Made by a program: the position numbers and the translations under genes. Shown in pieces: positions 59-59,194 of a DNA stretch of 64,000 nucleotides (positions are counted from its first letter, which is position 1; the number at the start of each line of letters is the position of its first letter). This DNA comes from a virus: the IMG/VR virus record IMGVR_UViG_3300031565_000020, positions 1 through 64,000 of that record. One strand, 5' to 3'. The notes under the pieces are model-generated. The model worked only from the letters and a program-made list of their open reading frames with translations. It made no database searches and was not told the DNA's origin.

Positions 59-343
59 ATGAAAAAAGATAAGTTTGAAAAAAAATGTAATGATTGGTTT
101 AAACGATGTACAGATGATTTGGGGATTAATTCGCAATATGTGGCTTTAATACAAAATCCTGATTTTTTATACGCTGCATATGTGGAAGAGATTAAAAAAG
201 GATTAAAAGATTTTACTGTGCACATGGAAAAAGAAGTCGGAGCAGCAATAACACGAGCCGCGGCTATACATGATTCTAAGGAGCAGATAAATATTTTAAT
301 AAAAAAACTGATAAAATCAAAAAGGAAAGAAGGTGCAAAATGA
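59..343 (+). CDS. Hypothetical protein, 94 aa
   Basis: I do not recognise this small, Lys-rich, largely helical protein. I chose the ATG at 59 because the run AAAAGGATGG lies at Shine-Dalgarno distance from it; the in-frame ATG at 50 overlaps that site. Its 3' end overlaps the next start by 4 nt (ATGA), so translation is probably coupled. Its C-terminal segment (INILIKKLIKSKRK) resembles the C-terminus of the next protein (INRLIKKLNRPKRK), suggesting that both belong to one family of tailed accessory proteins. Confidence 0.6.
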   Translation: MKKDKFEKKCNDWFKRCTDDLGINSQYVALIQNPDFLYAAYVEEIKKGLKDFTVHMEKEVGAAITRAAAIHDSKEQINILIKKLIKSKRKEGAK

Positions 344-1656
344 ATACAGTACGGCATATATATTTTCAAAATATAGAAATTGCGGTGAGTAGTTCAGATG
401 TATGTTCTTATACGTGTGGTGGTTCTAAGTGGGTATCCTATGATATATGGCTGGCTGTGAAGAACATTAGAAAGATTACTTATTGTCAAACCGAAAGAGA
501 TAGAGCGTGGTTATCATACAAAGGATATAATTTTTTAGCTGTGGAAGCTGCTACACAGTCTAACAATATTGTACGTTACAAAAATGACATTGGTATTTAC
601 CACAAAGAGTGGATCACTCTAAAAGGTTGTTTGGACTATATAGACATGGTAGAAAAGAAAAAACAGGAGAATAGAATATTACCCACTACTGTAAGAATAG
701 ACGGTGCCATAAAATGCAATATAAAAGCTTCTGTATCGAAAGACGTAAAAGAAAAACTAGAAGATCTTAAATCATATGTAACAACTTATTGTGGATATGT
801 AATAAGAGATTGTGATCCCGCATTACATAATGGAAATAATTTTTATGTTGATGGTACAGAGTGTACAGACGATGTTAAGCCGTATTTGGGTACCATCTAT
901 TATGAAAAGATGATCGATGTAAAAAATAGCATTGATCAGCGCAGAAAGTTACAGGAAGAGATGAAAAAAGAACATACTGACAAAACGAATACAGTACGGC
1001 ATATATATTTTCAAAATATAGAAATTGCAGTGGATTGTTTAGGTCGTTGTAGGTATAAGAATGATGGTATATATCATGCCTCTTATAATATATTGGCGGC
1101 TATAAAAATTATTAAAAGTTTGGATCTTATGCCCTGGGCTGGTCCTAGAAATTTTATAACGTATAAAGGTTATACATGTACAATTAAGAATTTTCGATTT
1201 GTATATCAAGATGATGCAGGTATACTTTGGAAAGAGTGGGATAATATAAATGATTTTTTGGACTATATAGACATGGTAGAAAAGGAAAAACAAGAAAAAA
1301 GAACAGTAAACGAACATACTACCGTATACAAAAAAGAGGCCCTAAGAAAATCAAGACCTTCACCAGATGTTTTTGTGTTCAAAACATCTGGTGAAGGCAA
1401 TATAAGAATGTATAAGGGACGTGTGATAAGTAAAGCCAGACGCGACGACACAACAGGATATTACCAAGTCAAATGTTTTCATAGGAAGACAAAAAATGCA
1501 AAAATGTTTACGCTAATTACTACGGAAAAAGTATATCCATCTACCCCGGAACTTGAAAAAGAGTATAATTTCTATTTGGAACGTGTATGTTATATGCAGG
1601 AACAAATTAACCGATTAATTAAAAAACTAAATAGGCCAAAAAGGAAAGACAAGTGA
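340..1656 (+). CDS. Unknown protein with tandemly duplicated domain, 438 aa
   Basis: The family is unknown. The protein holds two copies of one domain of about 110 residues. Copy 1 starts at the N-terminus with NTVRHIYFQNIEIAV and ends with LDYIDMVEKKKQENR; copy 2 starts near residue 218 with the same opening and ends with LDYIDMVEKEKQEKR. The flanking DNA is also nearly identical (342-380 and 989-1027), so the duplication is fairly recent or maintained by recombination. A basic C-terminal region follows. The start overlaps the upstream gene by 4 nt with AAGGTG as ribosome site. The gene contains a 17 bp perfect hairpin at 1357-1397. The next gene carries a diverged third copy. Confidence 0.7.
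   Translation: MNTVRHIYFQNIEIAVSSSDVCSYTCGGSKWVSYDIWLAVKNIRKITYCQTERDRAWLSYKGYNFLAVEAATQSNNIVRYKNDIGIYHKEWITLKGCLDYIDMVEKKKQENRILPTTVRIDGAIKCNIKASVSKDVKEKLEDLKSYVTTYCGYVIRDCDPALHNGNNFYVDGTECTDDVKPYLGTIYYEKMIDVKNSIDQRRKLQEEMKKEHTDKTNTVRHIYFQNIEIAVDCLGRCRYKNDGIYHASYNILAAIKIIKSLDLMPWAGPRNFITYKGYTCTIKNFRFVYQDDAGILWKEWDNINDFLDYIDMVEKEKQEKRTVNEHTTVYKKEALRKSRPSPDVFVFKTSGEGNIRMYKGRVISKARRDDTTGYYQVKCFHRKTKNAKMFTLITTEKVYPSTPELEKEYNFYLERVCYMQEQINRLIKKLNRPKRKDK
1357..1397. repeat. 17 bp perfect inverted repeat inside a coding sequence
   Basis: Bases 1357-1373 are the exact reverse complement of 1381-1397 (arm begins CCTTCACCAGATG), with a 7-base loop. The repeat lies wholly inside the duplicated-domain gene and keeps its frame open. 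No U-run follows, so it is not an ordinary terminator. Confidence 0.9.
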
Positions 1657-4508: not shown

Positions 4509-4551
4509 AGTTGGTACCATAAAATAATTATAAAAATAAATAAAAAACTTG

Positions 4552-4580
4552 TTGACAAAAACAAAGAACTGTATTATACT
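4552..4580 (+). promoter_or_regulatory. Sigma-70-type promoter, first copy of a repeated cassette
   Basis: A perfect -35 TTGACA (4552-4557), a 17 bp spacer and -10 TATACT (4575-4580) lie upstream of the 4630 gene. The block from the -35 through the -10 is identical at 10155-10183 and on the minus strand at 15646-15674. Confidence 0.9.
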
Positions 4581-4629
4581 TAGTATAGTAAGGCAGTTAG
4601 CCCGAACAAATAACTTTAAGGTGGTACTT

Positions 4630-4860
4630 ATGGAAATTATACAAGTAACTAATGGTTGGGGAAGCAAATCAGATCAAGAGGGTATAGCAGTAGGTAGAAA
4701 ATATTTTTACACCTATTACCTTAATAATAATGGAGAGTGGATTAAAAATGGAAAACATAAAATAAACAAAAACAAAGAATTAGTTAAAGCTTATCGGGAT
4801 AATGACAAGAGTGTATTGAAAGAAGAATGTAACAAAGAAAAATACTGGATAAATGACTAG
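4630..4860 (+). CDS. Hypothetical protein, 76 aa
   Basis: This small basic protein is of unknown function. The ATG at 4630 follows the leader TTAAGGTGGTACTT, a ribosome site repeated in front of several genes here, so I reject the longer frame that opens inside the promoter. It is the first gene after the strong 4552 promoter and so probably early and abundant. Confidence 0.65.
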   Translation: MEIIQVTNGWGSKSDQEGIAVGRKYFYTYYLNNNGEWIKNGKHKINKNKELVKAYRDNDKSVLKEECNKEKYWIND

Positions 4861-10127: not shown

Positions 10128-10154
10128 TATTTCAAACAATTATTTAAATAATTG

Positions 10155-10183
10155 TTGACAAAAACAAAGAACTGTATTATACT
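10155..10183 (+). promoter_or_regulatory. Sigma-70-type promoter, second copy of the repeated cassette
   Basis: TTGACA (10155-10160), 17 bp and TATACT (10178-10183) are identical to the promoter at 4552. The start-proximal leader TGAGGTGGTACTT is also shared, while the bases between differ (AACCGGTTGTTAACCG here). Confidence 0.9.
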
Positions 10184-10236
10184 TAAAGTAACCGGTTGTT
10201 AACCGTATTTATTTACTTTTTTTTGAGGTGGTACTT

Positions 10237-10734
10237 ATGACTTATGCAGATTATACAGAGCAAACAAACAAAGTTGATACATATTATACTTATTGTCCGA
10301 AATGTGGAAATTTCGATATAATAGAAAGTGTTAGTAATAACCCTGTTAGTTTCACATGTGAATGTGGTTGTGAAACTGTTGAAGCGGCAATTTGTCAAGA
10401 GTGCGATGGTTTGTACATCGTCGGTGAGGGTCTTTGTTGTGAACCGAGTGAATTACCAGTCATTGAAAACTGGCTTTTTGATGATGGTATCCCTGGTTAC
10501 ACCGTTGCATTCAACACGATAAAAACCGAAGTGAAATTTGATAAAGTTAGTGTATTTATGGCCCGTGCAAAAAAAACTGATCCGATACAATTTGATTACG
10601 AAAGTATGTCGGTTTTTTTTGCAAAAGAACTGTACATAACTGTGGACATGGGTTATTATGTAGCCGAAAAACTCGCCGAAAGTATGGGTATAAGACAACT
10701 GGAAAGACTTCGACTAACTAAGTTTGACAATTAA
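10237..10734 (+). CDS. Zinc-ribbon protein, 165 aa
   Basis: YCPKCGNFDII, FTCECGCE and ICQECDGLY give three CxxC or CxC groups in the first 70 residues, a double zinc-ribbon-like arrangement. The C-terminal part is acidic alpha/beta. I chose the ATG at 10237 because the repeated leader AGGTGGTACTT precedes it. The first gene after a strong promoter is probably expressed early. The function is unknown. Confidence 0.65.
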   Translation: MTYADYTEQTNKVDTYYTYCPKCGNFDIIESVSNNPVSFTCECGCETVEAAICQECDGLYIVGEGLCCEPSELPVIENWLFDDGIPGYTVAFNTIKTEVKFDKVSVFMARAKKTDPIQFDYESMSVFFAKELYITVDMGYYVAEKLAESMGIRQLERLRLTKFDN

Positions 10735-15614: not shown

Positions 15615-15645
15615 ATTGTTCTCCTTTAAACACCTCACTATACTA

Positions 15646-15674
15646 AGTATAATACAGTTCTTTGTTTTTGTCAA
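15646..15674 (-). promoter_or_regulatory. Sigma-70-type promoter, third copy of the repeated cassette
   Basis: On the minus strand, TTGACA (15669-15674), 17 bp and TATACT (15646-15651) repeat the 4552 promoter exactly, including the bases that follow (TAGTATAGTGAGG against TAGTATAGTAAGG). Confidence 0.9.
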
Positions 15675-15714
15675 CAAGTTTTTATTAAATAATTAAAATT
15701 TATTTAAAATTTCC

Positions 15715-35583: not shown

Positions 35584-35610
35584 ATAAATAAATTAACTCC
35601 TATTTATTTA

Positions 35611-35645
35611 ACCCGGCGCTTTATCATTCAAGAGCCGGGTGTTTT
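35611..35645. terminator. Second hairpin between convergent operons
   Basis: ACCCGGC (35611-35617) pairs with GCCGGGT (35634-35640) and is followed by GTTTTA rightward. The 150 bases from here to 35797 hold no gene I can support. A leftward frame there (a reading of YGYGKSLKER) has no good start and may be a remnant. Confidence 0.7.
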
Positions 35646-35797
35646 ACTCGTATTTTTCAAAATAACCCTTTCTTTTAAACTCTTTCCGTACCCGTACCAA
35701 CTATTCCCCCTCCCATCTTCTAAACATTCTAATATGCAAGCGTCTCTCATTAATCGGTCATACTCTTTTTTGTAATTGTAATCATTTCATTATTCAT

Positions 35798-36454
35798 TTA
35801 TTTTCTCCTTTGTTTTTCTGTTTTATTCCCATATTTCCAGCCGACAGAACATCCATTATTTATATTCCAATTCACAACATCAAGATTGGCTTGCCCCTGG
35901 GGAGTGCCTGGTTTGATTTCCATATTGTTGTTATTTAAATAAAGGCGTGTAAGTCCCATAAGTCCATTAAGCGGACTTATGGGACTTATTGAGTTACCGT
36001 CTAAATCAAGGTCCGTAAGTCCACTTAATGGGCTGATGTCGCTTATTGAATTGCTGTATAAATAAAGGTATTCACGCTCTGTAAGTCCTCTTAATGGGCT
36101 GAGGTCACTTATTGAGTTGTATGATAAATCAAGATATGTAAGCGCTGTAAGCCCACTTAATGGGCTTATGTCACTTATTTTGTTGTCGTCTAAATCAAGG
36201 GATGTAAGCGCTGTAAGCCCGCTTAATGGGTTTATGTCGCTTATTGAGTTGTTATATAAATTAAGGTCTGTAAGCGTTGTGCAGTATTCTAAACCGGCAA
36301 TATTTGAAATCTTTTTCATACTAGCACTTAATGATTTTATCAATACCAAATCAAAAGCCAAAATCTTTCCAGTTGGCTTGCCAATCTTTAAACGGATGAC
36401 AGATTCTAAATTTGGATCAGGAAAATTCACAACCATATTATTTTCATTTTTCAT
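35798..36454 (-). CDS. LRR protein 7 of the array, 218 aa
   Basis: This is the most promoter-distal member. The cap begins MKNENNMVVNFPDPNLESVI and contains LEYCTTL. About seven repeats of the form L-x-x-L-x-L-x-x-N-x-I-S-D-I-S-P-L-S-G-L-T follow, one of them shortened (PLSGLTDLDLDGNSISP). The tail GQANLDVVNWNINNGCSVGW ends NKTEKQRRK. No signal peptide or membrane segment is present, so it is probably cytoplasmic. It overlaps member 6 by 4 nt. It is probably a protein-binding scaffold; the target is unknown. Confidence 0.85.
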   Translation of the reverse strand: MKNENNMVVNFPDPNLESVIRLKIGKPTGKILAFDLVLIKSLSASMKKISNIAGLEYCTTLTDLNLYNNSISDINPLSGLTALTSLDLDDNKISDISPLSGLTALTYLDLSYNSISDLSPLRGLTEREYLYLYSNSISDISPLSGLTDLDLDGNSISPISPLNGLMGLTRLYLNNNNMEIKPGTPQGQANLDVVNWNINNGCSVGWKYGNKTEKQRRK

Positions 36455-37311
36455 TTATTTTCTCCTCTGATTTCCGTTTTATTTCCATATTTCCAGTTAA
36501 CGTCACACTCATTATCCAGATGCCTGTTAACAATATCAAGGTTAGTTTGTCCCTGGGTGGTGCCTGGTTTGATTTCCATGTCGTTGTTCTGTAAATAAAG
36601 GTATTTAAGCGCTGTAAGCCTGTTTAATGGTGTGATGTCACTTATTGAGTTGTTAGCTAAATGAAGGTATGTAAGAGCTGTAAGGCCGCTTAATGGGCTG
36701 ATATCAGTTATTGAGTTGTTATCTAAACCAAGGATTTCAAGCGCTGTAAGCCTGCTTAATGGGCTTACGTCAGTTATTGAGTTGTATGATAAACAAAGTT
36801 CTGTAAGCCCTGTAAGCCTGCTTAATGTGCTTATGTCAGTTATTGAGTTACCGTCTAAATAAAGGTCTTCAAGTTCTGCAAGTCCACTTAATGGGCTGAT
36901 ATCACTTATTGAGTTGTTATCTAAATGAAGATATGTAAGCGCTGTAAGTCCGCTTAATGGACTGATGTCACTTATTAAGTTATAGTATAAATAAAGTTCT
37001 GTAAGTGCTGTAAGCCTGCTTAATGAGCTTATGTCGGTTATTGAGGTGTTGTGTAAATCAAGGGATGTAAGCTCTGTAAGCTCTCTTATTGGGCTTAGAT
37101 CACTTATTGAGTTGTTATCTAAACCAAGGTATGTAAGAGCTGTACAACATTCTAAACCGGTAATATTTGAAATATCTTTATTGCTAGCACTTAATGATTT
37201 TATTCCGAACAAATCACAAGCCAAAATCTCCCCAATTGGCTTGTTGATCTCTAAACGGATGATAGATTCTAAATTTGGATCAGGAAAATTCACAACCATA
37301 TTATTTTTCAT
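36451..37311 (-). CDS. LRR protein 6 of the array, 286 aa
   Basis: It has the same architecture with about ten repeats. The cap has INKPIGEILACDL and LECCTAL, with an extra Cys compared with members 1-4. Residues at exposed positions of the LxLxxN strand differ between repeats (LGLDNN, LDLHNT, LYLYYN, LHLDNN, LYLDGN, LCLSYN). The tail ends NKTEIRGENK. The start overlaps member 5 by 11 nt. Confidence 0.85.
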   Translation of the reverse strand: MKNNMVVNFPDPNLESIIRLEINKPIGEILACDLFGIKSLSASNKDISNITGLECCTALTYLGLDNNSISDLSPIRELTELTSLDLHNTSITDISSLSRLTALTELYLYYNLISDISPLSGLTALTYLHLDNNSISDISPLSGLAELEDLYLDGNSITDISTLSRLTGLTELCLSYNSITDVSPLSRLTALEILGLDNNSITDISPLSGLTALTYLHLANNSISDITPLNRLTALKYLYLQNNDMEIKPGTTQGQTNLDIVNRHLDNECDVNWKYGNKTEIRGENK

Positions 37312-37843
37312 TTATTTCTCCTTTGTTTTCAGTTTTATTCCCATATTTCCAGTTAACATAACAACCATTATCTATATGCCAATTAACAACATCAAGATTA
37401 GTCTGCCCTTGGGTAGTGTCTGGTTTGATTTCCATGTCGTTGTAATTTAAATCAAGGTATGTAAGAGCTGTAAGCCCACTTAATGGACTTATGTCACTTA
37501 TTTTGTTGTTATCTAAATAAAGCTTTGTAAGCTTTATAAGTCCACTTAATGGACTTATGTCAGTTATTAAGTTACCGTCTAAATAAAGTTCTGTAAGCTT
37601 TATAAGTCCATTAAGTGGACTTAGGTCACTTATTGAGTTGTCATTTAAACTAAGGTATATAAGCGCTGTGCAACATTCTAAACCGTTAATATTTGAAATA
37701 TCCTTAAAACCAGCAATTAATGATTTTATCACGATCAAATCAGATTCTAAAATATCCCCAGTTGGTTTATTGATCTTAAAACGGATGATAGCTTCTAAAT
37801 TTGGATCAGGGAAATTCACAGCCATATTATTTTTATTTTTCAT
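37301..37843 (-). CDS. LRR protein 5 of the array, 180 aa
   Basis: This is the shortest member, with about five repeats. The cap reads INKPTGDILESDLIVIKSL with LECCTAL. The tail GQTNLDVVNWHIDNGCYVNW ends NKTENKGEINEK, shared with member 4. The start overlaps member 4 by 11 nt. Differences in repeat number between members fit loss or gain of 66 bp units. Confidence 0.85.
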   Translation of the reverse strand: MKNKNNMAVNFPDPNLEAIIRFKINKPTGDILESDLIVIKSLIAGFKDISNINGLECCTALIYLSLNDNSISDLSPLNGLIKLTELYLDGNLITDISPLSGLIKLTKLYLDNNKISDISPLSGLTALTYLDLNYNDMEIKPDTTQGQTNLDVVNWHIDNGCYVNWKYGNKTENKGEINEK

Positions 37844-38573
37844 TTATTTCTCCTTTGTTTTCCGTTTTATTTCCATATTTCCAGCCGACATAACACCCAT
37901 TATTTAGATGCCAATTAACAACATCAAGATTTATTTGCCCTTGGGGAGTGCCTGGTTTAATTTCCATGTCGTTGTTATCTAAATCAAGGGATGTAAGCGC
38001 TGTAAGCCCACTTAATGGGCTGATATCAGTTATTGAGTTGTTAGATAAACCAAGGTGTTTAAGCGCTGTAAGCCCACTTAATGTGCTGATATCAACTATT
38101 TCGTTCATGTCTAAATCAAGGAATGTAAGCCCTGTAAGGCTGCTTAATGGTGTTAGGTCAGTTATTTTGTTGCCGGATAAATCAAGGGATGCAAGCCCTT
38201 TAAGGCCGCTTAAAGGGCTTATGTCGCTTATTAAGGTGACAGATAAATCAAGGGATGTAAGCTCTGTAAGCCCTCTTAATGGGCTGATGTCACTTATTGA
38301 GTTATCAGATAAATCAAGGCCTGTAAGAGCTGTAAGCCTGCTTAATGGGCTGATGTCGCTTATTGAGTTGCCGTATAAATAAAGGGATGTAAGCGCTGTA
38401 CAGTACTCTAAACCGGTAATATCAGAAATATCTTTATTGCTAGCACCTAATGATTTTATTTTGACCAACTCAGATGATAGGATATCCCCTGTTGGTTTGT
38501 TGATCTTAAAACGGATGACATCTTCAAGATTTGGATCAGGAAAATTCACACCCTTATTATTTTTATTTTTCAT
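37833..38573 (-). CDS. LRR protein 4 of the array, 246 aa
   Basis: This member has about eight repeats. It includes variants such as DLTPLSSLTGLTFLDLDMNE and LISDISPLSGLKGLASLDLS that are found in no other member, so repeats have diverged individually. The tail is nearly identical to member 5, down to NKTENKGEINEK, suggesting recent duplication or conversion of the ends. Confidence 0.85.
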   Translation of the reverse strand: MKNKNNKGVNFPDPNLEDVIRFKINKPTGDILSSELVKIKSLGASNKDISDITGLEYCTALTSLYLYGNSISDISPLSRLTALTGLDLSDNSISDISPLRGLTELTSLDLSVTLISDISPLSGLKGLASLDLSGNKITDLTPLSSLTGLTFLDLDMNEIVDISTLSGLTALKHLGLSNNSITDISPLSGLTALTSLDLDNNDMEIKPGTPQGQINLDVVNWHLNNGCYVGWKYGNKTENKGEINEK

Positions 38574-39429
38574 TTATTTCTCCTTTGATTTCTGTTTTAT
38601 TCCCATATTTCCAGTTAACATAACATCCGTCATTCAGATGCCAATTAACAATATCAAGATTAGTTTGTCCCTGGGTGGTGTCTGGTTTGATTTCCATGTC
38701 GTTGTTAGATAAATCAAGGTATGTAAGCTTTGTAAGTTCGCTTAGTGGACTTATGTCACTTATTGAGTTGCCGTCTAAATAAAGTTCTGTAAGCTTTATA
38801 AGTCCACTTAATGGACTGAGGTCACTGATTGAGTTGACATTTAAACTAAGGTATATAAGCTTTATAAGTCCACTTAATGGACTTATGTCACTTATTGAGT
38901 TGTCGCATAAACCAAGGCGTGTAAGCGCTGTAAGCCCGTTTAATGGGGTGATATCAGTTATTGAGTTGCTATTAAAACTAAGTGATGTAAGCGCTGTAAG
39001 CCTGCTTAATGGTGTTAGGTTAGTTATTTTGTTGCCGGCTAAACCAAGAAATGTAAGCTTTGTAAGCCCTCTTAATGGGCTTATGTCTCTTATTGAGTTG
39101 TTGTCTAAACCAAGGCGTGTAAGTCCTGTAAGTTCACTTAATGGGCTTAGGTCACTGATTACGTTGTATGATAAACTAAGGTATATAAGCGCTGTAAGTT
39201 CGCTTAATGGACTGATGTCACTTATTGAGTTGCTATTTAAACTAAGGTCTGTAAGAGCTGTACAGTACTCTAAACCAGTTATATTTGAAATACCCTTAAA
39301 ACCAGCAATTAATGATTTTATCCCGACCAAATCAGATGATAGAATATCCCCTTTTGGCTTGTTGATCTCTAACCGGATGACAGCTTCAAGATTTAGATCA
39401 GGAAAATTCACAACCATATTATTTTTCAT
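38563..39429 (-). CDS. LRR protein 3 of the array, 288 aa
   Basis: With about ten repeats this is the longest member. The cap has INKPKGDILSSDLVGIKSL and LEYCTAL. It carries the ITNLTPLSRLTALTSLSFNS variant also found, diverged, in member 4. The tail ends NKTEIKGEINEK. The gene starts one base after the member 2 stop. Confidence 0.85.
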   Translation of the reverse strand: MKNNMVVNFPDLNLEAVIRLEINKPKGDILSSDLVGIKSLIAGFKGISNITGLEYCTALTDLSLNSNSISDISPLSELTALIYLSLSYNVISDLSPLSELTGLTRLGLDNNSIRDISPLRGLTKLTFLGLAGNKITNLTPLSRLTALTSLSFNSNSITDITPLNGLTALTRLGLCDNSISDISPLSGLIKLIYLSLNVNSISDLSPLSGLIKLTELYLDGNSISDISPLSELTKLTYLDLSNNDMEIKPDTTQGQTNLDIVNWHLNDGCYVNWKYGNKTEIKGEINEK

Positions 39430-40023
39430 TTATTTTCTCCTCTGATTTTCTGTTTTATTTCCATGTTTCCAGTTAACGTCACACCCATTATTCAGATGCC
39501 AATTAATAACATCAAGATTAGTTTGTCCCTGGGTAGTGCCTGGTTTTATTTCCATGTTGTTGTTATATAAATCAAGTTCTGTAAGAGCTGTAAGTTCACT
39601 TAATGGGCTGATGTCACTTATTTTGTTGTCATATAAACGAAGGAATGTAAGCGTTGTAAGTCCTCTTAATGGACTGATGTCACTGATTGAGTTGCTATCT
39701 AAATAAAGCTTTGTAAGCTTTGTAAGCCCACTTAATGGACTGATGTCACTGATTGAGTTGCTATCTAAATAAAGCTTTGTAAGCTTTGTAAGCCCACTTA
39801 ACGGACTGATATTGGTTATTGGGTTATCTTCTAAATCAAGTTCTGTAAGCGCTGTACAGTATTCTAAGCCGGTAATATCAGAAATATCAGACGAACTAGC
39901 ATATAATTCAGTTATCACGATCAAATCAGATTCTAAAATATCCCCAGTTGGTTTATTGATCTTAAAACGAATGATATCTTCTAGATTTTTATCAGGGAAA
40001 TTCACAACCATATTATTTTTCAT
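39430..40023 (-). CDS. LRR protein 2 of the array, 197 aa
   Basis: About six repeats are present, two of them identical and adjacent (LTKLTKLYLDSNSISDISPL twice), direct evidence of recent unit duplication. The cap reads NFPDKNLEDIIRFKINKPTG. The tail ends NKTENQRRK. The gene starts one base after member 1. Confidence 0.85.
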   Translation of the reverse strand: MKNNMVVNFPDKNLEDIIRFKINKPTGDILESDLIVITELYASSSDISDITGLEYCTALTELDLEDNPITNISPLSGLTKLTKLYLDSNSISDISPLSGLTKLTKLYLDSNSISDISPLRGLTTLTFLRLYDNKISDISPLSELTALTELDLYNNNMEIKPGTTQGQTNLDVINWHLNNGCDVNWKHGNKTENQRRK

Positions 40024-40623
40024 TTATTTTCTCCTTTGTTTTTCCGTTTTATTCCCATGTTTCCAGCCGACATAACATCCGTTATCCAGATGCCAATTAA
40101 CAATATCAAGATTAGTCTGCCCCGGGGCAGTGCCTGGTTTGATTTCCATGTCGTTGTAATTTAAAACAAGGGATGTAAGCTTTGTAAGTCCACTAAGCGA
40201 ACTTATGTCGGTTATTTTGTTGTAGTCTAAATAAAGGTATATAAGCCCTGTAAGCCTGCTTAATGTGCTTATGTCACTGATTGAGTTGCCGTCTAAATAA
40301 AGTTCTGTAAGCTTTATAAGCCCTCTTAATGGGTTGATGTCACTTATTGAGTTGTCATTTAAACTAAGGTATATAAGCTCTGTAAGTTCGCTTAATGGGC
40401 TAATATCAGTTATTTTGTTGTTATATAAGTAAAGGTCTGTAAGAGCTGTACAGTACTCTAAACCAGTTATATTTGAAATCTTTTTATTGCTAGCACGTAA
40501 TGATTTTATTCCGACCAAATCAGAAGCTAAAATATCCCCAGTTGGTTTATTGATCTTTAAACGGATGACAGCTTCTAGATTTTTATCAGGGAAATTCACA
40601 ACCATATTATTTTCATTTTTCAT
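40024..40623 (-). CDS. LRR protein 1 of the array, 199 aa
   Basis: This is the first member, about six repeats. I use ATG 40623, which opens MKNENNMVVNFPDKNLEAVI like all other members; a longer in-frame reading would run through the methyltransferase gene. The start lies inside the last codons of the methyltransferase (11 nt overlap), so its expression is tied to that gene. Confidence 0.85.
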   Translation of the reverse strand: MKNENNMVVNFPDKNLEAVIRLKINKPTGDILASDLVGIKSLRASNKKISNITGLEYCTALTDLYLYNNKITDISPLSELTELIYLSLNDNSISDINPLRGLIKLTELYLDGNSISDISTLSRLTGLIYLYLDYNKITDISSLSGLTKLTSLVLNYNDMEIKPGTAPGQTNLDIVNWHLDNGCYVGWKHGNKTEKQRRK

Positions 40624-41428
40624 TTGTTTCTCCCCACTCTTCCCTTTTACCATATTGTTTACACACATACCACCACCAATGATTGGTTTTGTCAATGCTA
40701 CACGCATACCGCAATTTATGTTTTTGCATCTTTTTTTCCTCTGTACCGTCTTTTGTGTACATAGTCCTAAACGGGTTACAACAATAACCGGCAATACAGT
40801 TCTTACATGTGTCATCACTTTGTTTTATGACATACTGCTGATTACTAATCAAATCAACACAAGTCTTTTCTTTGTATTCTTTTTTCCATATATACCAAGC
40901 ATAGACTTGCATACCTGTTATATATTTTCCGTCATCCCTAATTTCATCGCTTAACATAGGGTAACGGGTGAATGTCTCTATGTTTGTGAGGTAAAACCCA
41001 TTAAGCCCTGTAAATATTTTTTCGGAAAACCTTTGTTGTCCGGAAAAATACGATTGCGGTAGTAAAAAAGCAAATGCTTTTTGCGCAACAAGGCCTGCTT
41101 GCTGGATAAAAGCGCCAGCGTGTATAAACGGCGGATTACCTATTATGTAAGCTGGTTTTTCTGCAACAAAATCAAAAGGTTTTAAGAAATCAAATTCAGG
41201 ATACTGAATTGCCTTAACAGTCTTAAAATATTGCTGCAACACCTTTACCATCGCACCCTTACCCGCTGCTGGCTCCAATACTGGCAGCGTAAAATCAAAA
41301 AAATCTTTATACTTATCTATAAATTGTCTTGTCATAGAATAAGGTGTCTGGTAATCATCATCCTTATTGCGTTGACCCTGGTTAACCTTACTATAACATT
41401 TACCCGTTTTATTTTTTTCTTTTTCCAT
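40613..41428 (-). CDS. DNA N6-adenine methyltransferase-like protein, 271 aa
   Basis: Class I methyltransferase fold: VLEPAAGKGAMVKVL near residue 50 is the S-adenosylmethionine-binding motif I, and IIGNPPFIHAGAF near residue 96 carries the catalytic NPPF of N6-adenine enzymes. The C-terminal third is unusual: it has a Cys cluster (CKNCIAGYCC) and a WWWYVCKQYG end, possibly a metal-binding target module. It could protect phage DNA from restriction. No cognate nuclease is seen beside it. It heads the LRR genes and overlaps the first of them. Confidence 0.82.
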   Translation of the reverse strand: MEKEKNKTGKCYSKVNQGQRNKDDDYQTPYSMTRQFIDKYKDFFDFTLPVLEPAAGKGAMVKVLQQYFKTVKAIQYPEFDFLKPFDFVAEKPAYIIGNPPFIHAGAFIQQAGLVAQKAFAFLLPQSYFSGQQRFSEKIFTGLNGFYLTNIETFTRYPMLSDEIRDDGKYITGMQVYAWYIWKKEYKEKTCVDLISNQQYVIKQSDDTCKNCIAGYCCNPFRTMYTKDGTEEKKMQKHKLRYACSIDKTNHWWWYVCKQYGKREEWGETNEK

Positions 41429-43940: not shown

Positions 43941-44069
43941 TTAATATTCCTTTTTAATATGCCCCATACTCTCGTAAGATCGCAATCTCTGTGACCGCGC
44001 TTTTAATTTTTCATATTCCGCTTTTGTAATTGTACCCATTATTTCATTGTTTGTATTCTTCTTCTTCAT
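43941..44069 (-). CDS. Small basic protein, 42 aa
   Basis: The start follows TTAACTTTAAGGTGGTACTT, the fullest copy of the repeated leader, and the gene is first after the 44121 promoter. MKKKNTNNEIMGTITKAEYE continues with a basic helix. The function is unknown. Confidence 0.6.
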   Translation of the reverse strand: MKKKNTNNEIMGTITKAEYEKLKARSQRLRSYESMGHIKKEY

Positions 44070-44120
44070 AAGTACCACCTTAAAGTTAATTTTTAAGCTA
44101 GTTGCCAACTAACTAATATT

Positions 44121-44149
44121 AGTATATTACATAAGTTTGTTTATGTCAA
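44121..44149 (-). promoter_or_regulatory. Sigma-70-type promoter
   Basis: On the minus strand, TTGACA (44144-44149), 17 bp and TATACT (44121-44126). The -35 overlaps the last codons of the primase gene. It belongs to the same family as the 4552 promoter (spacer begins TAAACAA). Confidence 0.88.
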
Positions 44150-45049
44150 CAAGTTTTTATATGTTTTCTTAACTTTCTTCATAAACAACTTACTTTCATC
44201 TTGTGTAAGGTTGTCGGCGGCCTTTTCAGCACTTATAATAAAACTAACTACACCCAAGCTATCAAGTAACAAACTAAGTTTTTGACTACCGTCTCTGCCT
44301 GCGCTATCAGGATCAAAGTAGATGAAAACTACCTTGAAACAAGATAGTAACAAGACTTGTTGCTCTGTGAAGATACGACCTAAGGTCGCGCAAGTGTTAT
44401 CGCCTAACTTCCAAACTTTCATAAATCCCTCTGTTACTATACACCAATCTTTTTGACAGTTATCGAAGTTGTAAAGTATATGCTTATGGTGCACTATCTC
44501 TTTTGGCTTTGAACACGCTTTGTACCGTTGCTCGCTTTGATTAGTTATGTCTCTTCCTTGGTAGCTAACCAACTTTTTATTGTAAAAAAAGGGTACAACA
44601 ACCCTTAATCGATATGCACCAAGTGGGCCGGTCCCTGTTATCTTATACTTATGTATGAGGTAATCAGGGCTAAATCCTCTTTGTTTCAAGTAGTTTTTAT
44701 GTAATTTTGTTAGATTTTGCCCTGGTAATATAACTTTTTTGGGTATTTCTTTTAGTTTTCTTTCATTATTGTTTAATTTTAATAATAATTGATAACCTGG
44801 ACGATACTGTTTTACGATCTGTTGTGGGCTCGTATCCGGTGCAAGTAGTTTTAGTGTGGCAAAAATTGATTTTTTACCACATTTCCAACAGCTCGCACCC
44901 ATACCATTTTTTGCAATTCCAAAATGGTACCCGTGATCATCACAGCCAGGGAAAGGGCAATGAATATTTAAGAAATTTTCAGACGTGTTTGGACCTTCCG
45001 TAATGAAATCAATATTGTAATCCCCTAGAAACCGTTCAACATCGAACAT
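44141..45049 (-). CDS. DNA primase (zinc finger plus TOPRIM), 302 aa
   Basis: C31, C36, C54 and C57 (CPFPGC and CWKC) form a CHC2-like zinc ribbon that reads single-stranded templates. A TOPRIM domain follows, with IVTEGFMKVWKLG carrying the catalytic Glu and VFIYFDPDSAGRDG carrying the DxD metal site. It makes RNA primers for lagging-strand synthesis, and the helicase is a separate gene at 50549. It lacks the helicase-interaction domain of bacterial DnaG. It is leftward, possibly reading from the 47074 promoter. Confidence 0.85.
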   Translation of the reverse strand: MFDVERFLGDYNIDFITEGPNTSENFLNIHCPFPGCDDHGYHFGIAKNGMGASCWKCGKKSIFATLKLLAPDTSPQQIVKQYRPGYQLLLKLNNNERKLKEIPKKVILPGQNLTKLHKNYLKQRGFSPDYLIHKYKITGTGPLGAYRLRVVVPFFYNKKLVSYQGRDITNQSEQRYKACSKPKEIVHHKHILYNFDNCQKDWCIVTEGFMKVWKLGDNTCATLGRIFTEQQVLLLSCFKVVFIYFDPDSAGRDGSQKLSLLLDSLGVVSFIISAEKAADNLTQDESKLFMKKVKKTYKNLLT

Positions 45050-49877: not shown

Positions 49878-49970
49878 CGGGCTGTGGTCTAATTGGGAGC
49901 GGCTATCTGATCCATAGCAGTAAGACAAGGGCAAACGCCTTTATTGTGAGTTCGAATCTTACCGGTCCGA
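49878..49970 (+). tRNA. Abnormal tRNA-like element, anticodon loop three bases short
   Basis: The acceptor CGGGCTG/CGGTCCG and the T-arm GTGAG-TTCGAAT-CTTAC are good. A D-stem GTCT (49887-49890)/AGAC (49923-49926) encloses a 32-base D-loop that begins AATTGGG and contains an extra hairpin GCTAT-CTGATCC-ATAGC. The arm in the anticodon position is AGGGC/GCCTT with a loop of only AAAC, followed by a normal 4-base variable region. An alternative fold makes the CTGATCC hairpin the anticodon arm (GAU) and the AGGGC arm a long variable arm, but then base 37 is C and the D-stem is poor. Confidence 0.55.
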
Positions 49971-50038: not shown

Positions 50039-50039
50039 T

Positions 50040-50110
50040 GGCCTAATAATCTAATGGTAGGATATTAGATTTTCGATCTAAGTACCGGGGTTCGACTCCC
50101 TGTTAGGCTA
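50040..50110 (+). tRNA. tRNA-Glu (anticodon TTC)
   Basis: All arms pair: acceptor GGCCTAA/TTAGGCT (first pair G-U), D-stem ATC/GAT with a GG-containing loop, anticodon stem TTAGA/TCTAA with loop TTTTCGA (anticodon UUC), T-arm CGGGG-TTCGACT-CCCTG and discriminator A. 71 nt, CCA not encoded. Confidence 0.93.
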
Positions 50111-50348
50111 ATGAACAAGCACGAACTGAGCAATAGGAATTATGATAAACGACACACTTTAAGTTTTTAATTCCTCCCTTTTGAGCTATACGAGAACAAG
50201 GTAGACACAAAAGGGCAGCGTGTTACGTGGGTGGCGAAGGAAAGTCGATGACTAAACCCGTTTACCGCTAGACGAACAAGCGGAAATCTAATTAGTACAA
50301 AGCAGGATTATACCCGCGCCTGTTGAAATAATGGCGGGTACATTTTTT
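50111..50348 (+). ncRNA. Structured RNA after tRNA-Glu with terminator, about 240 nt
   Basis: No protein frame is present. Perfect helices: AGGAATTA (50135-50142)/TAATTCCT (50168-50175); CCCTTTTG (50176-50183)/CAAAAGGG (50208-50215), stacked directly next to the first; CCGCT (50265-50269)/AGCGG (50279-50283); and a terminator TACCCGC-CC/GGCGGGTA (50311-50340) with six T. The segment GAAGGAAAGTC (50236-50246) recalls the GAGGAAAGTC of RNase P RNA, but the other conserved parts are missing. Confidence 0.55.
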
Positions 50349-57933: not shown

Positions 57934-58203
57934 ATGAATACAGAAGACCATGAATTTATTAATGGCCTTTGCAATCTTGCAGGGGCCATTGCATATTTGA
58001 AAAAAAACAAAAAGCCCATGAATTCCGGGACATTCAAAAACTGGTTTCAGCAAATTGGATGGTCAGACCAAATAGGATATATGCGAATATACAAAAAAAG
58101 TGATTTGGATAAAATAATTAAAGGTGTTGTAAAATATGGAGAATGGAAAGCCGAAGACCACAGGAAAAAAATTAAAAGTAACAAAGATAGAAAAAATAAT
58201 TAA
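57934..58203 (+). CDS. Small HTH-like protein, 89 aa
   Basis: The middle part, MNSGTFKNWFQQIGWSDQI then MRIYKKSDLDKIIK, looks like a small winged-helix or excisionase fold, with a basic tail. It starts two bases after the SSB stop. It may help load or regulate recombination; no family is certain. Confidence 0.58.
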   Translation: MNTEDHEFINGLCNLAGAIAYLKKNKKPMNSGTFKNWFQQIGWSDQIGYMRIYKKSDLDKIIKGVVKYGEWKAEDHRKKIKSNKDRKNN

Positions 58204-59194
58204 AAAAGCAATGAGGCGAAAGCCATTAGTTGAATTTATCACAACCGGCTGTGATATGTATGATCTGGTGTTGGGCGGGGGTTACATTCAGGGTGGGCTC
58301 ATAAACATCGTAGGTGATAAATCAACATGCAAGTCATTACTGGCTACTGAGTGTGTAGCGGCCAACAGGGATGTGCCGCACCAATATTTTGATGAGGAAT
58401 CCGGCGCAAAATTTGACACACAAGCTGTATACGGTATGGACATATATGCCGAAGTGGTGCCAGAAACATTAGAAGAATTTGCATATTCGACCTTCCCTGT
58501 TTTTTATAGAGACAAACAACAGTCACTAACTGTTGTAGACAGTTATGATGCATTACAAAGCAAAGCTGCACGGATACGACAGCAGGAAGAGGAACAGCGG
58601 TACAAAAAAAATCAAGACCCTGATCCGGAAAATAAAGGTTCTTACAAACTTGAAAAGCCCAAATTACTGAAAGAATTTCTGGGCTCCCATATTGTGGCTA
58701 TGCAAAAGAAAAAAGCGACGTTAATTTTTATATCCCAGTTGATAGCGAACCTGGACAATCTTATGTACAAACCTAAGCACAAGAGAACGGGTGGTAAAGC
58801 ACTCGATTTCTATTCAAGTCAAATAATCTGGCTAAGAGAGGTAGAAAAGCACTTCAAAAAAGGGCGGGCAATAGGCGTTACTGTCGAGATCCGAACCGAA
58901 AAATGTAGAAGCGCGACACCTTTTCGAAGTTGTTATATACAAGTATTGTTTGGCTATGGTGTTGATAATGTCACAACTAATCTTTTATTTCTGTATGACA
59001 TGTATACAGCGAAAGAGGGGAAATTAAAAAAAAGCGCAACTGTTGTATGGGATGGTGTGGAGATGACATTAGATCAGGCTGTCGAGCATATCGAAGTGAA
59101 TAACCAGGAAGCGGAATTAAAAAAAAGAATCGTTGAAAAGTGGCATAAGATAGAAAACGAGATTGGACCTGGCAAGCGGAAAAGGAAATATTAA
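58136..59194 (+). CDS. RecA/UvsX-like recombinase, 352 aa
   Basis: The RecA core has LVLGGGYIQGGLINIVGDKS followed by TCKS (Walker A GDKSTCKS) near residue 55, the QYFDEESGAKFD strand, Walker B SLTVVDSYDALQ near 125 and FISQLIANL near 200. It promotes strand exchange. Start 58136 has AAAGGTG 9 bases upstream and overlaps the previous gene by 68 nt; an ATG at 58211 (MRRKPLVEF) is the other option. Confidence 0.82.
   Translation: MENGKPKTTGKKLKVTKIEKIIKKAMRRKPLVEFITTGCDMYDLVLGGGYIQGGLINIVGDKSTCKSLLATECVAANRDVPHQYFDEESGAKFDTQAVYGMDIYAEVVPETLEEFAYSTFPVFYRDKQQSLTVVDSYDALQSKAARIRQQEEEQRYKKNQDPDPENKGSYKLEKPKLLKEFLGSHIVAMQKKKATLIFISQLIANLDNLMYKPKHKRTGGKALDFYSSQIIWLREVEKHFKKGRAIGVTVEIRTEKCRSATPFRSCYIQVLFGYGVDNVTTNLLFLYDMYTAKEGKLKKSATVVWDGVEMTLDQAVEHIEVNNQEAELKKRIVEKWHKIENEIGPGKRKRKY

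What the first reader, a model, noticed from the sequence alone, without database searches (positions are those of the whole stretch)
35798..40623. Seven-gene tandem LRR cassette array with coupled translation
Seven paralogues in a row share cap and tail but differ in repeat number (about 5 to 10 units of 66 bp) and in the exposed residues of each LxLxxN strand. Each gene's tail carries the ribosome site for the next. Member 2 has two adjacent identical repeats; members 4 and 5 share nearly identical tails. This looks like a repertoire that changes by recombination between 66 bp units and between genes. None has a signal peptide, so the proteins act in the cell or on virions. A multi-member LRR set inside a phage genome, behind a DNA methyltransferase, is unusual and could be a family of binders against variable host targets.
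Basis: partly seen in the sequence, partly recalled or inferred. Interest (0 to 1): 0.82.

Follow-up and report, generated by a model that had tools for sequence, protein, structure and literature searches.

The report
Phage array of seven recombining LRR binders
A 65-kb bacterial virus carries seven intact genes in a row for small intracellular leucine-rich-repeat proteins whose binding faces differ and whose genes recombine with one another, which looks like a toolkit of binders for unknown host proteins.

Summary
Seven intact paralogous genes (180-288 aa) lie head to tail on the minus strand, 40623 to 35798, in a circular 64,757-bp myovirus genome. Each is N-cap plus 4-9 LRR units of 22 aa plus C-cap, with no signal peptide. 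Each start overlaps or abuts the previous stop, with an AGGAG site in the preceding tail. AlphaFold2 gives an internalin/SDS22-class solenoid (pLDDT 91.5). The array is distal in a minus-strand block downstream of a repeated sigma70-like promoter, away from the plus-strand structural genes.

Recombination between members is supported. PHI tests are significant in caps and tails. A ~97% identical relative (G001) has a mosaic first gene: g1 flank and start, then 101 bp identical to g3. Exposed strand positions carry pN/pS 1.30 against 0.53 elsewhere. None of 45 contigs chosen by capsid or methyltransferase similarity has a related LRR (many are fragments). Unrelated virus contigs carry one to four signal-less LRR genes; bacterial homologues examined are mostly secreted.

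Most likely: intracellular binder proteins of different specificity, diversified by homologous recombination and selection. Targets (host defence proteins guessed) are unproven. The fold is known; a seven-gene recombining set in a phage was not found elsewhere here.

The parts
40024..40623 (-). LRR gene g1 (199 aa, 5 LRR units)
   Evidence: intact ORF; Pfam LRR_4 5e-26; first gene is mosaic in relative G001
39430..40023 (-). LRR gene g2 (197 aa, 5 units; units 2 and 3 identical)
38563..39429 (-). LRR gene g3 (288 aa, 9 units); its cap is identical over 101 bp to the first gene of G001
   Evidence: Pfam LRR_4 2e-48; AlphaFold2 model pLDDT 91.5
37833..38573 (-). LRR gene g4 (246 aa, 7 units)
37301..37843 (-). 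LRR gene g5 (180 aa, 4 units)
   Evidence: 58-bp exact tract shared with g2 cap
36451..37311 (-). LRR gene g6 (286 aa, 9 units)
35798..36454 (-). LRR gene g7 (218 aa, 6 units, one shortened by 3 aa)
40031..40035 (-). Shine-Dalgarno AGGAG for g2 inside the g1 tail (equivalents at 39437-39441 g3, 38580-38584 g4, 37850-37854 g5, 37318-37322 g6, 36462-36466 g7)
   Evidence: read from the upstream sequences printed
40613..41428 (-). Small DNA methyltransferase-like gene (271 aa; GNPPF motif), overlaps g1 start by 11 nt
   Evidence: phrog_799 DNA methyltransferase 5e-26; homologues of about 200 aa at 44-45% identity in two other virus contigs
44121..44149 (-). Sigma70-like promoter (TTGACA-17-TATACT) in a repeated element; candidate promoter for the block that ends with the LRR array
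   Evidence: 11/12 match; similar copies near 4521-4632, 10142-10240 and 15631-15685
35600..35650 (.). Convergent terminator-like region between the array and the plus-strand tail genes
   Evidence: terminator-like match at 35636-35650; CCCGGC...GCCGGG stem visible in the sequence printed
58136..59194 (+). UvsX/RecA-like recombinase of the phage, candidate agent of recombination within the array
   Evidence: phrog_97 6.5e-27, Pfam RecA 3e-18

Best explanation
The locus encodes a set of seven small cytosolic binding proteins built on the internalin/SDS22-type leucine-rich-repeat fold and nothing else (N-cap, 4-9 repeats, C-cap). They are made together from one translationally coupled array, probably during the intracellular phase of infection, from a host-type sigma70 promoter. 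The concave strand face of each differs, so each probably binds a different protein. The set changes by homologous recombination: gain or loss of 66-bp units, and exchange between members, possibly helped by the phage's own UvsX-like recombinase. Change at the binding face is kept by selection. The most likely role is to bind and neutralise, or redirect, host proteins that vary between hosts, defence proteins being the leading guess. Shown: anatomy, predicted fold, sequence mosaicism, excess change at exposed positions. Inferred: expression timing, selection as the cause, binding, the targets.
For: Seven intact ORFs with a conserved framework. High-confidence solenoid with beta-strands at 22-residue spacing covering the variable xLx positions; closest solved folds InlA, InlF, InlC2/InlB, Roco LRR and SDS22. 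Exposed positions 9, 11, 13, 14, 16: pN/pS 1.30 (bootstrap 1.06-1.65) against 0.53 (0.45-0.65) elsewhere; no random set of 5 columns in 400 reached the observed pN. Exposed pN over all-site pS is 1.77 here, 0.73 in pooled Goldiibacteriota LRRs and 0.82 in the phage pair L030. PHI: no permutation of 2000 as low as observed in caps; 0 to 15 of 2000 in tails. In G001 the first gene is 84% identical to g1 over 160 bp, where 125 other windows have a median of 2 differences per 160 bp; its last 101 bp are identical to g3. The array shares the strand and block with helicase and primase-like genes, opposite to the structural genes. UvsX- and SbcC/D-like genes are present. No reverse transcriptase was found by a Pfam RVT_1 search, which argues against a diversity-generating retroelement.
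Against: No target is known and no defence family matches (PADLOC). Only one relative, from a contig that ends inside g1, tests reshuffling, so an assembly chimera at a contig end is not fully excluded. The pN/pS signal comes from paralogous repeats with few synonymous sites; other LRR proteins reach similar or higher values (Mollicutes plasmids L016-L018), and g6 alone is below 1. LRR x-positions are variable in any LRR family.
Confidence: 0.5

Rival explanations
1. Virion-associated adhesins: the LRR proteins decorate particles or tail fibres and bind variable receptors on the host surface, as internalins do on the bacterial surface.
For: Closest folds and most homologues examined are secreted or surface binding proteins; phage proteins need no signal peptide to enter virions; the array ends next to the tail genes.
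Against: Opposite strand to the structural genes and convergent with them; shares a block and a likely sigma70-type promoter with replication-type genes; no structural or attachment domain beyond the LRR and its caps.
Confidence: 0.15
2. Superinfection exclusion or inter-phage competition: each member binds and blocks a protein of competing phages or mobile elements rather than of the host.
For: A cytosolic variable set would also suit variable rivals; location in a block with an early-type promoter.
Against: No direct evidence; nothing in the sequence names the target.
Confidence: 0.12
3. Tandem amplification with little function: one ancestral LRR gene duplicated by recombination between its own repeats; copies and repeat numbers drift, and exposed positions vary because nothing constrains them.
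For: 66-bp repeats favour slippage and unequal crossing over; exposed positions of ordinary LRRs vary too.
Against: All seven ORFs are intact, framework positions are under purifying selection (pN/pS 0.53), and exposed pN exceeds the synonymous level; the phage spends 4.8 kb (7%) of its genome on the array.
Confidence: 0.15
4. Dosage or assembly set: the seven proteins bind each other or one common partner and act as one scaffold; differences are incidental.
For: Translational coupling suggests co-production in similar amounts.
Against: Repeat number differs more than twofold and the strand faces share few residues.
Confidence: 0.08

Closest known systems
Listeria internalins (InlA, InlB, InlC2, InlF, InlH)
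   Same: 22-aa SDS22-class LRR units, helical N-cap, concave binding face; about 31-46% identity by tblastn; top structural hits
   Different: Internalins are secreted proteins of bacteria with signal peptides; these are signal-less, phage-borne, made of cap-LRR-cap only, in a coupled seven-gene array
Secreted LRR lipoproteins and plasmid LRR proteins (Goldiibacteriota MAG SKW91; Mollicutes bacterium LVI plasmids)
   Same: Closest sequence relatives found outside the phage: 50-55% over N-cap and repeats for Goldiibacteriota, 53-59% for Mollicutes plasmids; Goldiibacteriota proteins also end in an LRR C-cap
   Different: Goldiibacteriota proteins have signal/lipoprotein-like N-termini and stand singly in their loci; the Mollicutes plasmid proteins are longer, some with a DUF5011 part
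Signal-less LRR genes in other virus contigs (L030/G003 pair, one fused behind a YopX-like domain; G004 with four ORFs; PHROG 6688 and 7816)
   Same: LRR proteins without a signal peptide encoded by viruses, sometimes in two or more copies
   Different: At most two in tandem; unrelated phage backbones; different caps
Variable lymphocyte receptors of jawless vertebrates
   Same: Works-like resemblance only: LRR cassettes, variable unit number, variation concentrated on the concave strands (own knowledge)
   Different: VLRs are somatically assembled, secreted or membrane bound; here whole genes recombine in a genome
LRR gene families of giant viruses and entomopoxviruses
   Same: Multi-member LRR families in large DNA viruses; the neighbours in the viral structure library are of this kind
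   Different: Eukaryotic viruses, low sequence identity (17-35%), other LRR subclasses

Membership tests
Internalin-fold (SDS22-class) LRR proteins | Tandem 22-aa LxxLxxLxLxxNxIxDIxPL units forming a solenoid | tested here: met
Internalin-fold (SDS22-class) LRR proteins | Helical N-terminal cap preceding the repeats | tested here: met
   helix 12-22 in the model; profile alignment with InlB/InlC2/InlH/InlF begins at positions 8-15, inside the cap
Internalins sensu stricto (bacterial secreted or surface proteins) | Signal peptide and surface anchoring or secretion | tested here: not met
   N-termini MKN..NMVVNFPD lack a hydrophobic stretch; the protein ends after the C-cap
Internalins sensu stricto (bacterial secreted or surface proteins) | Ig-like inter-repeat domain after the LRRs | tested here: not met
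   after the repeats only a C-cap helix and strand, residues 252-272 of g3
Diversity-generating retroelement target | Reverse transcriptase in the same genome | tested here: not met
   no RVT_1 match in the 64,757-bp record; control genomes ring
Known anti-phage defence proteins | Match to a PADLOC family | tested here: not met
   no match for g1, g3, g6 or the methyltransferase-like protein; PADLOC lists defence, not anti-defence
VLR-like diversified receptor (works-like only) | Variation concentrated on the concave face | tested here: met
   pN/pS 1.30 exposed, 0.53 elsewhere
VLR-like diversified receptor (works-like only) | Exchange of cassettes between members | tested here: met
   PHI tests and the G001 mosaic; one relative only
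VLR-like diversified receptor (works-like only) | Binding to many different ligands | not testable with these tools
   needs pull-downs

The most novel reading that the evidence does not exclude
The array is a phage-encoded, recombination-diversified repertoire of cytosolic LRR binders, each against a different host defence protein: an antibody-like toolkit that the virus brings into the cell and reshuffles at strain level.
Probability: 0.22. Interest if true: 0.88.

Novelty: new variant of a known kind. Interest (0 to 1): 0.62.

Why it matters
If the proteins bind different host factors, one phage carries a ready-made panel of natural LRR binders, and the targets can be found by pull-down with seven related baits. 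It would connect a well-known binding scaffold (internalins, VLRs) with phage-host conflict, and gives a compact system to watch repeat recombination create new binding faces. If the targets are defence proteins, it would be a kind of anti-defence by variable binders not seen in the resources searched here.

Tried and rejected
Searches for array relatives with tail and cap patterns in viral contigs found only G001 as a close relative; the first genome-contig scan found nothing and the second found mostly secreted or large LRR proteins. Distant blastn against INPHARED phages: no match. tblastn against phages hits mostly Listeria records that are probably chromosomal internalin DNA (inference). 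The Mollicutes plasmids with many hits looked at first like LRR arrays, but the annotated records show long LRR genes repeated with their whole surroundings, as in multimeric or concatenated plasmid sequence. Diversity-generating retroelement: no reverse transcriptase. Integrated prophage: no tyrosine integrase found. Relation of the methyltransferase tail to the LRR tails: only a similar ribosome-site region, not pursued. Literature searches found LRR domains in isolated phage proteins (PMC10945359, a weak HHpred match in a vibriophage tail-module protein; PMC7765460, a BspA-type LRR gene in a jumbo vibriophage) but no multi-gene array.

Full report
WHAT THE WINDOW IS. The window is 64,000 bases of a 64,757-bp virus record. 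Its ends overlap by 126 bp, so the genome is circular or circularly permuted. It is a contractile-tailed phage: portal, head protease, phrog_264 capsid, sheath, tape measure and baseplate wedge on the plus strand between about 11.7 and 35.5 kb, with a DNA polymerase, DnaB-like helicase, clamp loader, UvsX-like recombinase and SbcC/D-like genes at 50-62 kb. No tyrosine integrase was found. G+C is 36% for the genome and 35% for the array.

THE ARRAY. Seven ORFs follow one another on the minus strand from 40623 to 35798. Each consists of a cap beginning VNFPD.NLE..IR, a variable number of 22-aa LRR units (5, 5, 9, 7, 4, 9, 6) and a shared tail with C.V.WK.GNKTE. None has a signal peptide, and in the two members scanned Pfam finds LRR families only. 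Each start codon overlaps or abuts the previous stop, with AGGAG inside the previous tail. The two kinds of tail end (QRRK and GEINEK) follow from small length differences in the purine-rich ribosome-site stretch (alignment). A methyltransferase-like gene (phrog_799) precedes the array and overlaps g1 by 11 nt.

FOLD. AlphaFold2 on g3 with the six sisters gives mean pLDDT 91.5 and pTM 0.85. Beta strands recur every 22 residues and coincide with the xLx motif; there is an N-cap helix (12-22) and a C-cap helix and strand (252-272). The best solved matches are InlA, InlF, Roco LRR, InlC2, InlB and SDS22. In the library of predicted viral structures the named matches among the top 50 are from eukaryotic viruses (giant viruses, entomopoxviruses, an algal virus), none from a tailed phage.

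VARIATION. Over 30 in-register units, positions 9, 11, 13, 14 and 16, which are the exposed concave positions around LxLxxN in LRR architecture (established knowledge), have pN 0.51 and pS 0.39, ratio 1.30 (bootstrap 1.06-1.65). The other positions have ratio 0.53 (0.45-0.65). None of 400 random sets of five columns reached the observed pN. As controls, exposed pN over all-site pS is 1.77 here, 0.73 for pooled Goldiibacteriota LRRs, 0.82 for the phage pair in L030, but 1.8 or more in Mollicutes plasmid proteins. So the pattern fits diversifying selection but is not unique, and it rests on paralogous repeats.

RECOMBINATION. PHI tests (own implementation) on caps gave no permutation of 2000 as low as observed; tails gave 0 to 0.0075; caps plus tails 0 to 0.005, depending on the window. 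g2 units 2 and 3 form a 71-bp exact repeat at 66-bp offset; g2 and g5 share 58 identical bp in the cap; g1 and g3 share 48. The relative G001 (IMGVR_UViG_3300031673_000211) is about 97% identical over most shared blocks. Its contig begins inside g1. Over the first 160 bp it is 84% identical to window g1 (25 differences), while 125 windows elsewhere have a median of 2 differences and only two reach 25 or more. Upstream sequence and the MKNENN start are of g1 type; the last 101 bp are identical to g3. This is a mosaic made by gene conversion or by a deletion that joined g1 to g3. Because the contig stops there, an assembly chimera remains possible.

PLACE IN THE GENOME. The minus-strand block 47046-35798 holds a helicase-like gene, a Toprim/primase-like gene, small genes, the methyltransferase-like gene and the array. 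A sigma70-like promoter at 44149-44121 belongs to a repeated element with further copies near 4.5, 10.1 and 15.6 kb. It is a candidate start for the block that ends with the array. Expression in the intracellular phase is therefore more likely than in the late structural programme; this is inference.

DISTRIBUTION. In one search 50 virus records were queried with the array profile. Five had been brought in by the LRR-unit search; 45 had been chosen by capsid or methyltransferase similarity. The five matched, the 45 did not. Many of the 45 are fragments, so absence is weak evidence, but it fits a recent, lineage-limited acquisition. Signal-less LRR proteins do occur in other virus contigs: a tandem pair in L030 between replication genes and the terminase, the second behind a YopX-like domain, and four ORFs in the 189-kb record G004. 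Most bacterial homologues found are secreted.

MECHANISM. The best reading is a set of co-produced cytosolic binders with different faces, diversified by recombination and selection, acting on host proteins. Anatomy, predicted fold, mosaicism and excess change are shown; timing, binding, selection as the cause and targets are inferred. Defence proteins are a guess based on phage biology, without a database match. Rivals are virion adhesins, inter-phage competition, neutral amplification and a common scaffold.

NOVELTY. The fold is known and single phage LRR proteins are known. A seven-gene, translationally coupled, recombining set was not found in the collections and papers searched here. I therefore call it a new variant of a known kind.

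Noticed in passing
window 35640-35797, minus strand: Directly after g7 a short ORF starts MNNEMITITKK and continues in another frame as EYDRLMRDACILECLEDG..., which resembles a common small phage protein; the frame changes at a run of A, so it is either broken or frameshifted.
   Followed up: partly
window 4521-4632, 10138-10240, 15629-15706, 44067-44171: Four copies of a repeated intergenic element with a near-consensus sigma70 promoter (TTGACA-17-TATACT type), on both strands.
   Followed up: partly
L030:5608-7197: In an unrelated phage contig two signal-less LRR genes lie in tandem; the second is fused behind a YopX-like domain.
   Followed up: partly
L121, L126, L129, L130 (record G004, 188,942 bp): A large virus record carries four separate signal-less LRR ORFs, dispersed rather than in tandem.
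   Followed up: no
L016, L017 (CP136957.1, CP136955.1): LRR proteins on Mollicutes bacterium LVI plasmids show a strong excess of amino-acid change at exposed LRR positions (exposed pN over all-site pS 4.8 and 6.6) at low DNA divergence; the records look like multimers of one unit.
   Followed up: partly
window 40613-41428, minus strand: The methyltransferase-like protein has a cysteine-containing C-terminal extension of about 70 aa that its roughly 200-aa homologues in L115 and L116 lack.
   Followed up: no
window 336-676 and 981-1303: Internal DNA duplication within the ORF at 340-1656, pieces about 85-96% identical.
   Followed up: no
window 49878-49970 and 50039-50111: Two tRNA-like genes, one tRNA-Glu (TTC) and one with an unusual four-base anticodon call, ccat.
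   Followed up: no
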